Source: Spirochaetota bacterium
Lineage (GTDB): Bacteria; Spirochaetota; UBA4802; UBA5550
Direction of reading: 5' to 3'
DNA length: 47,301 bases
Assembly (NCBI GenBank): GCA_009787025.1
Contig: WRGT01000065.1
Coordinates: 1 to 47,301 of the forward strand
The translations under genes and the position numbers were made by a program. This document shows, one piece after another, positions 5,575 through 16,059 of the stretch (the first letter of the stretch is position 1; each line of letters opens with the position of its first letter). The notes beneath the pieces are model-generated. The model saw nothing but the letters and a program-made list of their open reading frames with translations. It did no database searches and was not told where the DNA came from.

Positions 5575-5918
5575 CTATATTTCCTATGGATAAATATTGT
5601 TGTTTAAAAGCTCATATATCATATTACACAGCAATCTATAAAAAATTATTTATAGAATCAATGGTTTAATTCAATATAGTTTCTCTTAATTGTCTTCTTA
5701 AAATTACATTGAACTATTATAAAGCATATCGACATTATTCTAATAAAAAAGTTTCATAAAATTCGTTTTAGTCTGTATTATTTACAGTTTGATATAACTT
5801 ATCCTCTTCATTCCTTTATGATAGATAAGAGTCAGGTTAAAATTTTTATGAATATAAACTTTATTAAAATTATCTTGATTGACGAAAAATATCATAATTT
5901 GATTTATTAAAAGAATTA

Positions 5919-13578: not shown

Positions 13579-14811
13579 ATGAAAAACATTAAAATTTCTA
13601 AAAATAAAGCCTTTCTTAGTTTAATGTTAATATTTGTTTTTGCAGCAGCAAGTTCTGTTATTTTAGCACAAGGCTCTGTAAAAGATGATATTTTGAAACA
13701 ATTTAAAGAGAATAAAGCGCAAATAGATAAAACCGATGAAGAACTAAAAGCATCAATGCAGGACATGGTTGAAGATTTAAAAAAGAAAAACGCAAAGTTT
13801 AAAGTTGAACTCAATGAGATGATGAAATATAAAATTTCGGAAATCACAGGATTAAAACCGCCTTCTAATAAAGAATTAAAAAGGTTAGAGGAAGAAAGGA
13901 GAAAAAAAGAGGAACTGGAACGCAAAAGAGCCGAGAATGAACGTCAGAAAGAATTAAAACGTCTTGAAGATGAACGTAAAAAAAGAGAAGAAGAAATAAA
14001 CAGAGAGAATGACAGAAAAAAACAGGAAGAGATGAGAAAACAGGAAGAGGAACGGAGAAAGCAGGAAGATCAAAAAAGAAATGAGCAGGACAAGAAAGAA
14101 CAGATGCTGGATAGGAATGTTCCTCTGAATCTTGCGCCTTCCATAACACTTGCCGCTTTTGCATGGAACGGCAAAAATACATCAACCGTAGTTCAATATC
14201 AGGGCACTTGCGGAAGCTGCTGGGCATTTACATCAGCTGCTGCTTATGAAACTAATTATATAATAAAAAACGGAAAGACCCTGCATATTTCCGAACAGGC
14301 GATACTTAACTGCTCTGTTGACAGAACAGGAAAGAAAGCCGGTTCATGCGACGGAGGATGGTATGGCGGAGTTTTTGACTACTTAATGGTAAACGGCGCT
14401 AAAACTGCAGATCAATTCCCATATCAGGGAAAAGCCGCTTCATGTGCAGATAATTCAAAGACTAAATATATGGTTCTTAAATGGGGATATATCAGGTCCG
14501 ATGCAGGCATACCATCGGTAAAAGAGGTGAAAGAGGCAATAGCCAAGTATGGCGCCATTGCAGCAACGGTTAAGGTTACTCCGGCATTTCAGGCTTATAA
14601 GAGCGGAATCTTTGATGAACATACAAAAGTATCAGGACCTAACGATGTAAACCATGCAATTACAATTGTAGGCTGGGATGATAACAAGCAGGCGTACTTA
14701 GTAAAAAATTCATGGGGACCGCAATGGGGAGAGAACGGATACATCTGGGTTGAATATGGCAGCAACAATATAGGTTACGGCGCTGCATGGATTGTTGTAG
14801 CACAAGAATAA
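13579..14811 (+). CDS. Secreted papain-like (C1 family) cysteine protease with charged coiled-coil N-terminal region
   Basis: 410 aa; hydrophobic signal sequence, long E/K/R-rich heptad-like segment, then QGTCGSCWAFTSAAAYE, NHAITIVGWDD, YLVKNSWGPQWGENGY (Gln, Cys, His, Asn catalytic motifs). Confidence 0.93.
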   Translation: MKNIKISKNKAFLSLMLIFVFAAASSVILAQGSVKDDILKQFKENKAQIDKTDEELKASMQDMVEDLKKKNAKFKVELNEMMKYKISEITGLKPPSNKELKRLEEERRKKEELERKRAENERQKELKRLEDERKKREEEINRENDRKKQEEMRKQEEERRKQEDQKRNEQDKKEQMLDRNVPLNLAPSITLAAFAWNGKNTSTVVQYQGTCGSCWAFTSAAAYETNYIIKNGKTLHISEQAILNCSVDRTGKKAGSCDGGWYGGVFDYLMVNGAKTADQFPYQGKAASCADNSKTKYMVLKWGYIRSDAGIPSVKEVKEAIAKYGAIAATVKVTPAFQAYKSGIFDEHTKVSGPNDVNHAITIVGWDDNKQAYLVKNSWGPQWGENGYIWVEYGSNNIGYGAAWIVVAQE

Positions 14812-14827
14812 TTAGAGGTGAAAACAT

Positions 14828-15211
14828 ATGGCGTTTATAAAACATATTTTACCGGTTACGCTGCTTATGCTCTTTATATCCGGATGTGGAGAATCTATTG
14901 TTAAGGTAAAAGCCGGAGATGATAATCAGATAGTAAGAGCTAAGGTTAATAAAAAATTTTTGATTCAATTAGAATCTAAACTGAGTACGGGTTTTAGCTG
15001 GAAGCTTATGGAATATCCGCAAGGTCTTTCAGTAAATAAAGAAGATGTTAAGACCGAAGAGAGCAATAAAACCGGGGGCGTCGATATTCAGGAGTTTATC
15101 TTAAAATCTGCCGAAAAAGGCGAATTTACTATTACATTTCAATATGGAGAGCATTGGAAAAAAAATCCTCAATATGTAAAGACATTAAAGATTAAAGTAG
15201 TTATTGAGTAA
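14828..15211 (+). CDS. Chagasin-like (I42 family) cysteine protease inhibitor lipoprotein
   Basis: 127 aa; lipobox LFISGC; STGFSW (NPTTG-loop equivalent), NKTGGVDIQEF (GxGG-loop equivalent), GEHWKKNP (RPW-loop equivalent). Confidence 0.8.
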   Translation: MAFIKHILPVTLLMLFISGCGESIVKVKAGDDNQIVRAKVNKKFLIQLESKLSTGFSWKLMEYPQGLSVNKEDVKTEESNKTGGVDIQEFILKSAEKGEFTITFQYGEHWKKNPQYVKTLKIKVVIE

Positions 15212-15238: not shown

Positions 15239-15277
15239 GCCTCGTTATGAACGTGTAAAACACTCTCATAACGAGGC
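15239..15277. terminator. Perfect 12-bp hairpin between convergent genes
   Basis: GCCTCGTTATGA-N15-TCATAACGAGGC with an additional inner GTGT/ACAC stem. Confidence 0.55.
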
Positions 15278-15330: not shown

Positions 15331-16059
15331 CTAATTCAACAAATCGTCATAGAAATATTTAATCCATTCCTTATATGTATCCTGCGCCGACAAACAAGTG
15401 TCAATCAAATAACCTTTTATGTTTGCAAATTCTTTTAAGCCGCGATAGTAAAATTGTTTGCGATTGTCGTCAATAATGAACGGGGTTATGCAGTTTCTCA
15501 AACATTCGCGAAACATAATCAGACGGCCAACTCTGCCGTTGCCGTCCTGAAACGGGTGAATTTTCTCAAAACGATAATGATATTCTATTATGGTTTCAAA
15601 TAAAATTTCAGGCAGAGAATTATACCATTTATTAAGTTTATTCATGTGGGTTTCCACATTTTTTGGCAGAGTGGTTTCTGTTCCGCTTACTTCATTAGCC
15701 AGTGTTTTCCATCCGCCGACCTTAAACCATTCTTTCGCAGCATCGGACGTTCCTGTTTTTAAAATCCTGTGGAACTCTTTTATTATTTCGTTAGAAAGCG
15801 GTCTGTCAACAAGATCAAGTAAATAATCAAAAGCTACAAAGTGATTTGAAGTTTCGATAATGTCATCTACAGGCACAGCTTCCTGGTCTTTAAATCCAAT
15901 CGTACGAGTTTCAAAAATATAACGGGTTTGTTCTTCGGTCAACTTGCTGCCTTCTATTCTGTTTGAATTGTAAGCAAAATTTACCTGCGTTTTGTGATAT
16001 AAGCCGCCCTTTAGCCTTGTCTGTTTTTCTTCTTTGAGATATGTTAATAATTTATTCAT
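15331..16059 (-). CDS. Fic family protein (putative AMPylase)
   Basis: 242 aa; core motif HPFQDGNGRVGR; N-terminal SNRIEG matches the (S/T)xxxE(G/N) inhibitory motif. Confidence 0.93.
   Translation of the reverse strand: MNKLLTYLKEEKQTRLKGGLYHKTQVNFAYNSNRIEGSKLTEEQTRYIFETRTIGFKDQEAVPVDDIIETSNHFVAFDYLLDLVDRPLSNEIIKEFHRILKTGTSDAAKEWFKVGGWKTLANEVSGTETTLPKNVETHMNKLNKWYNSLPEILFETIIEYHYRFEKIHPFQDGNGRVGRLIMFRECLRNCITPFIIDDNRKQFYYRGLKEFANIKGYLIDTCLSAQDTYKEWIKYFYDDLLN

What the first reader, a model, noticed from the sequence alone, without database searches (positions are those of the whole stretch)
13579..15211. Secreted papain-like protease followed directly by its probable chagasin-type inhibitor
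A C1 protease with all catalytic motifs and a long charged coiled-coil N-terminal region (in the propeptide position) is followed 16 nt later by a lipoprotein with all three chagasin (I42) loop signatures. Enzyme and inhibitor in one operon suggests self-protection or a controlled exported proteolysis module. The coiled-coil 'pro-region' is atypical for classical C1 propeptides.
Basis: partly seen in the sequence, partly recalled or inferred. Interest (0 to 1): 0.7.

Follow-up and report, generated by a model that had tools for sequence, protein, structure and literature searches.

The report
Papain-like protease with partner lipoprotein inhibitor
This uncultured spirochaete-phylum bacterium carries an exported papain-like protease gene followed directly by a membrane-anchored chagasin-type inhibitor gene, and the two have stayed together across a whole bacterial order, which points to the inhibitor's natural target: the cell's own enzyme.

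Summary
At 13579-14811 (+) there is an exported C1A (papain) protease with an intact active site (Q208, C214, H359, N377). Sixteen nt downstream, at 14828-15211, is an I42 (chagasin) lipoprotein. They are the only C1 and the only I42 found in this incomplete Spirochaetota genome.

The pair is conserved. Of 29 I42-bearing genomes in the order, 28 have the inhibitor gene directly 3' of the protease; the other is a fragment at a contig edge. Adding two relatives from another family gives 30 pairs (gap -4 to 113 nt, median 17.5), in several gene neighbourhoods. Outside the order, 26 of 31 I42-bearing Spirochaetota genomes tested have no C1 gene.

Two corrections. The charged coiled coil is a variable linker (26-130 aa, Pro-rich elsewhere); upstream lies a conserved ~60-residue module, essentially confined to C1 proteins and not detectably I29. 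The inhibitor's L2 loop is non-canonical: paired inhibitors have Q/K/R-x-[S/G]-TG, unpaired ones NPTTG-like.

Best reading: a self-protection or activity-control module, analogous to staphopain/staphostatin, SpeB/Spi and Bacteroides C10/Bti operons, but built from C1A plus I42. Inhibition itself is not shown; the co-fold was inconclusive.

The parts
13579..14811 (+). Exported C1A papain-family cysteine protease, 410 aa
   Evidence: Pfam PF00112 1.8e-46; PDB cathepsin H 2.7e-34; model matches papain folds, TM up to 0.74 by target length
13579..13671 (+). Signal peptide, probable signal peptidase I type (ends ...VILAQ); no lipobox
   Evidence: Read from sequence; 'AQ' junction recurs in close relatives. 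No dedicated signal-peptide predictor was run.
13672..13869 (+). Conserved N-terminal module (about 60 aa, ending NxKFxVxxNExMKYxIxxITGxxxP), candidate propeptide not detectably related to I29
   Evidence: E 1.3e-28 here; other hits lie N-terminal of C1 domains apart from three weak ones, E>1e-4; Pfam, PDB and hhalign found no I29 relation
13870..14133 (+). Highly charged coiled-coil linker (69% K/R/E/D)
   Evidence: Linker 26-130 aa across homologues, Pro-rich in some; predicted helical
14158..14769 (+). C1 catalytic domain; Q208 (14200-14202), C214 (14218-14220), H359 (14653-14655), N377 (14707-14709)
   Evidence: active-site motifs intact in 29 of 29 paired homologues checked
14812..14827 (+). 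16-nt intergenic gap with ribosome-binding site (AGAGGTG)
14828..15211 (+). I42 (chagasin-family) lipoprotein, 127 aa
   Evidence: Pfam PF09394 9.8e-15; PDB amoebiasin-2 9.6e-8
14828..14887 (+). Lipoprotein signal peptide and lipobox FISGC (lipidated Cys20)
   Evidence: Read from sequence; lipobox-like signal in 30 paired inhibitors, strict pattern in 23
14978..15001 (+). Inhibitory loop L2, KLSTGFSW (paired-clade variant of NPTTGY)
15071..15079 (+). Inhibitory loop L4, TGG
15143..15157 (+). Inhibitory loop L6, YGEHW (RPW position; W110)

Best explanation
A two-gene operon makes an exported papain-type protease and its own inhibitor. The protease crosses the inner membrane through Sec, probably as a zymogen whose conserved N-terminal module acts as propeptide and folding aid (inferred). 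It matures in the envelope or outside the cell, where it degrades protein. The chagasin-type inhibitor is lipidated at Cys20 and stays attached to the cell envelope. Its L2, L4 and L6 loops plug the active-site cleft of prematurely active or back-diffusing enzyme, so the cell is protected while enzyme outside works freely. Shown here: gene identities, intact active site, export signals, order-wide tight co-linearity, a distinct L2 loop in the paired inhibitors. Inferred: co-transcription, direct inhibition, zymogen role of the module, and self-protection as the purpose.
For: Only one C1 and one I42 in the genome, adjacent. In the order, 28 of 29 I42-bearing genomes have I42 directly 3' of C1 on the same strand; the exception is a fragment at a contig edge. 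Thirty pairs, gap median 17.5 nt, range -4 to 113. The pair persists while flanking genes differ. All 30 inhibitors carry lipobox-like signals; active-site motifs intact in 29 of 29 proteases checked. By contrast, 26 of 31 other I42-bearing Spirochaetota genomes tested have no C1. L2 starts with Q/K/R in 30 of 30 paired inhibitors against N in 13 of 13 readable unpaired ones; G003 carries one of each. C1 and I42 distances stay correlated after removing ribosomal S2 distance (partial r=0.395, permutation p=2e-4, n=27). The architecture is a known theme for bacterial papain-fold proteases, with lipoprotein inhibitors in Bacteroides (PMC3462683).
Against: No inhibition, transcription or localisation data. 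The co-fold was inconclusive: pTM 0.41, no coordinates available, shallow alignment. L2 departs from the canonical motif at the Asn and first-Thr positions; in chagasin, changes at T31 weaken inhibition of cruzipain 10-100-fold (PMC2607524 abstract), so affinity may differ. G005 keeps the protease with no I42 in its genome, and families f22 and f41 include homologues with no adjacent I42, so the inhibitor is not indispensable. The mirror-tree test uses one marker and does not model tree structure.
Confidence: 0.72

Rival explanations
1. The inhibitor defends the cell against foreign papain-like proteases (grazers, competitors), as Pseudomonas Cip1 acts on host proteases; the neighbouring protease is just a co-regulated exoenzyme.
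For: Most I42-bearing Spirochaetota genomes outside the order have no C1 target of their own, as in Pseudomonas (PMC5014320), so outward-facing chagasins probably exist.
Against: Order-wide tight adjacency to one specific protease, with flanking genes changing, and a paired-clade L2 loop unlike the unpaired chagasins, even within genome G003.
Confidence: 0.1
2. Regulated periplasmic proteolysis: the protease acts in the envelope on specific substrates, and the lipoprotein sets a threshold or releases the enzyme on a signal, rather than protecting against leakage of a digestive exoenzyme.
For: Coiled-coil linker and helical N-terminal module could place the enzyme in an envelope assembly; some homologues lie next to sigma-factor, anti-sigma-like or FecR genes (G005, G140).
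Against: Linker composition is not conserved; no regulatory gene is conserved with the pair; a sister architecture couples the same module and catalytic domain to ricin-type lectin repeats, which suits an extracellular enzyme.
Confidence: 0.14
3. Adjacency is inherited synteny without functional coupling.
For: C1 distances follow the species marker (r=0.81 with ribosomal S2), so descent is largely vertical.
Against: The pair outlasts changes in all surrounding genes; pairs in other families (G089, G155, G221) and a reversed-order pair with a different C1 type (G054, G066) exist.
Confidence: 0.04

Closest known systems
Bacteroides C10 proteases with Bfi/Bti staphostatin-like inhibitors (PMC3462683)
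   Same: Exported papain-fold protease gene next to, within a few nt of, an exported inhibitor gene; BtiA and BtiZ/BtiB exported and some predicted lipoproteins; co-transcription shown there
   Different: C10 protease and staphostatin-like inhibitor there; C1A protease and I42 here
Staphopain/staphostatin (C47/I57) and SpeB/Spi (C10) operons
   Same: Protease gene contiguous with the gene of its specific inhibitor, thought to stop self-damage
   Different: Those inhibitors act in the cytoplasm and belong to unrelated folds; here the inhibitor is a predicted envelope lipoprotein of the chagasin family
Pseudomonas chagasin-like inhibitor Cip1 (PMC5014320)
   Same: Exported bacterial I42 inhibitor of C1A proteases
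   Different: Target is a host protease; most Pseudomonas genomes lack C1A; canonical NPTTG motif
Trypanosoma chagasin/ICP with cruzipain
   Same: Same inhibitor family controlling an endogenous C1A protease
   Different: No signal peptide, not linked in an operon, canonical NPTTG/GxGG/RPW loops
Cathepsin L-like proenzymes with I29 propeptide
   Same: Papain catalytic domain preceded by a helical N-terminal region
   Different: No detectable I29 similarity; long variable charged linker between module and enzyme

Membership tests
Peptidase family C1A (papain) | C1 catalytic domain by profile | tested here: met
   PF00112 159.4 bits against cut-off 20.7
Peptidase family C1A (papain) | Gln-Cys-His-Asn active site | tested here: met
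   Q208, C214, H359, N377 invariant; 29 of 29 paired homologues intact
Peptidase family C1A (papain) | Papain fold | tested here: met
   Foldseek to papain-family structures, TM about 0.7 by target length; moderate model confidence
Cathepsin L-like proenzyme (I29 propeptide) | I29 / ERFNIN propeptide | tested here: not met
   No I29 hit in Pfam, PDB profile search or own-genome search; hhalign probability 1.4%
I42 (chagasin) inhibitor | I42 domain over curated cut-off | tested here: met
   55.1 bits against 27.2
I42 (chagasin) inhibitor | Loop motifs NPTTG, GxGG, RPW | tested here: inconclusive
   KLSTGF, TGG, EHW: TG, G and W cores kept, flanking residues differ
I42 (chagasin) inhibitor | Inhibits C1A protease | not testable with these tools
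   Co-fold inconclusive, pTM 0.41
Bacterial lipoprotein | Signal peptide with lipobox Cys | tested here: met
   FISGC; similar signals in all 30 paired inhibitors, strict pattern in 23
Protease-inhibitor self-protection operon (staphopain/staphostatin, SpeB/Spi, Btp/Bti) | Inhibitor gene contiguous with protease gene, conserved | tested here: met
   30 pairs, median gap 17.5 nt
Protease-inhibitor self-protection operon (staphopain/staphostatin, SpeB/Spi, Btp/Bti) | Co-transcription and protection from the protease | not testable with these tools
   No expression data
Staphostatin (I57) or Spi (propeptide-like) inhibitor | Inhibitor of that fold, cytoplasmic | tested here: not met
   Inhibitor is I42 with a lipoprotein signal

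The most novel reading that the evidence does not exclude
This C1A lineage uses two inhibitors. One is a new, uncatalogued propeptide family (the conserved module, unrelated to I29). The other is a dedicated chagasin lineage with a re-tooled L2 loop that evolved for the cognate protease, which would make this the first identified natural endogenous target of a bacterial chagasin, as far as the open-access papers I could search go.
Probability: 0.4. Interest if true: 0.68.

Novelty: new variant of a known kind. Interest (0 to 1): 0.5.

Why it matters
Whether bacterial chagasins act on their own or on foreign proteases has been open: a 2009 analysis says verified inhibition existed only for a eukaryotic target (PMC2784779), and a 2016 paper says a role for bacterial chagasins had not been elucidated and that most Pseudomonas genomes lack a C1A target (PMC5014320). 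An order-wide C1A plus I42 operon gives a natural cognate pair, so the question can be tested at the bench. It also offers a new candidate propeptide family and shows that the co-operon inhibitor theme of C10 and C47 proteases extends to true C1A enzymes with a different inhibitor fold.

Tried and rejected
Coiled coil as the pro-region: rejected, linker length and composition vary widely. Co-fold: catalytic domain plus inhibitor of L061, with the TAA stop read as Gly to make one chain, gave pTM 0.41 and no coordinates, so it is inconclusive. Full-length protease model: pTM 0.52, N-terminus helical at low confidence, no docking information. First mirror-tree run used wrong ORFs for ribosomal S2 in several genomes and was discarded, then redone. 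Promoter and terminator scans were at chance level. Plasmid tblastn found only distant C1 genes. NCBIfam TolA hit on the coiled coil is compositional and far below its cut-off.

Full report
WHAT IS THERE. The window lies in a Spirochaetota metagenome assembly (1.66 Mb held, 73.6% complete). The organism was named through close relatives such as HGW-Spirochaetae-5, UBA5763 and UBA5550. The ORF at 13579-14811 (+) encodes a 410-aa exported C1A protease, and the ORF at 14828-15211 (+), 16 nt later, encodes a 127-aa I42 lipoprotein. The catalytic residues are Q208, C214, H359 and N377. Solved relatives are cathepsins H, S and K for the enzyme, and amoebiasin-2 and a T. brucei ICP for the inhibitor. 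Each family has exactly one hit in the genome, and the two hits are neighbours. The leuB-like gene upstream is divergent and the Fic-family gene downstream is convergent, so the two genes form an isolated unit.

CONSERVATION OF THE PAIR. I searched 198 related genomes for each family, fetched the loci and located both domains. Within the same order, 29 genomes have I42. In 28 of them I42 lies immediately 3' of a C1 gene on the same strand. The remaining one (G038) is a half-domain hit at 5643-5753 of a 5767-base contig, so its neighbour is off the contig. Two genomes of another family (G089, G155) are arranged the same way, giving 30 pairs. The stop-to-start gap has median 17.5 nt and range -4 to 113, and 27 of 30 are at most 60 nt. 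G221 (another family) also has the two domains close together on one strand. The surrounding genes differ between sub-clades while the pair stays.

EXCEPTIONS. G005 has the protease but no I42 in its genome. G043's protease ends at a contig edge. Homologues in f41 (G140, G148) and part of f22 (G107, G176, G179) have no adjacent I42. G003 has a second, unpaired I42 and a second, unpaired C1. G054 and G066 carry a reversed-order pair in which I42 precedes a different, larger C1 protein.

CONTRAST. In a 393-genome phylum sample, 64 genomes have I42. Of 31 outside the order that I tested for C1, 26 have no C1 at all. In a 399-genome sample of the phylum of Clostridium oryzae, 22 have I42 and 11 of those have a C1. 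In two (G454, G583) the two lie about 1.3 kb apart on one strand. Close C1-I42 linkage is therefore unusual in general and nearly fixed in this order. Genomes of one order are not independent observations, but the persistence through changing neighbourhoods is hard to explain without coupling.

THE INHIBITOR. All 30 paired inhibitors begin with a signal peptide ending in a lipobox-like Cys (strict pattern in 23). The TG core of loop L2 is kept in all 30. Its first residue is Q (28), K (1, this window) or R (1), and the residue before TG is S or G. Unpaired Spirochaetota I42 proteins have N at the first position in 13 of 13 readable cases, and so do 16 Bacillota hits; the reversed-order pairs also keep N. 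G003 holds both kinds. This could be an ancestral mark of one clade or an adaptation to the partner enzyme; I cannot separate the two. The canonical motifs are NPTTG, GxGG and RPW (PMC5014320).

THE PROTEASE N-TERMINUS. Across 34 homologues the charged stretch is a linker of 26 to 130 residues, 26-74% K/R/E/D, and up to 46% Pro in some. Upstream lies a conserved segment with the pattern NxKFxVxxNExMKYxIxxITGxxxP. A profile of it finds 41 matches in 118 genomes. Those I could place lie N-terminal of C1 domains, apart from three weak matches (E above 1e-4) in ORFs of about 620 aa in family f15 that I did not examine. It also occurs in a second architecture, ricin-type lectin repeats + module + C1, where about 45 residues separate it from the enzyme. 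Position and co-occurrence make it a propeptide candidate. It is not I29 by any test I ran, and no structure supports docking on the active site.

STRUCTURE. AlphaFold2 on the full protease gave pTM 0.52; the catalytic part matches papain-family structures. A single-chain co-fold of the catalytic domain and inhibitor of the nearest relative, reading its TAA stop as Gly, gave pTM 0.41 and is uninformative.

CO-EVOLUTION. For 27 genomes, C1 and I42 tree distances correlate (r=0.62). With ribosomal protein S2 distance removed the partial correlation is 0.395 (permutation p=2e-4). C1 itself follows S2 (r=0.81), so descent is mainly vertical. This is supportive only: one marker, and the permutation ignores tree structure.

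KNOWN SYSTEMS. [quoted passage not shown] The present case works like these but combines a true C1A enzyme with an I42 inhibitor, and I found no paper describing such an operon (open-access library only). The natural target of bacterial chagasins was stated to be unresolved (PMC2784779; PMC5014320).

VERDICT. Real, well conserved, and most likely a cognate protease-inhibitor pair for self-protection or activity control. New variant of a known kind. The inhibition itself remains to be measured.

Noticed in passing
L111-L115, L117 (G014, G001, G016, G026, G002, G012): Second C1 architecture in the same clade: ricin-type beta-trefoil repeats, then a C1 domain, with the conserved module detected in between in most (a matching segment is visible by eye in G012). 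No I42 neighbour was found in the fetched loci.
   Followed up: partly
L099 (G054), L100 (G066): Reversed-order pair in other families: I42 lipoprotein gene immediately upstream of a 750-760 aa protein with a different C1 type, preceded by a conserved ~250 aa protein of unknown function.
   Followed up: partly
L104 (G005), L102/L103 (G140, G148): Unpaired homologues lie next to a sigma-factor-like gene and an anti-sigma/FecR-like gene (G005) or a FecR-domain gene and lipoprotein genes (G140, G148), suggesting separate regulation where the inhibitor is missing.
   Followed up: partly
L102, L103, L107, L108: Several unpaired homologues have CGSCY or CGDCY instead of CGSCW at the catalytic cysteine.
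   Followed up: no
window 15239-15277: Perfect 12-bp inverted repeat (GCCTCGTTATGA / TCATAACGAGGC) between the convergent I42 and Fic genes, without a T-run right after it on either strand; may still be a bidirectional terminator.
   Followed up: no
window 15331-16059: Fic/DOC-family protein (Pfam 2e-18) encoded convergently right after the inhibitor gene; not conserved with the pair in relatives.
   Followed up: partly
L065/L096 (G016): N-terminal part of the protease is split across frames next to an ambiguous base, probably an assembly error in that genome.
   Followed up: no
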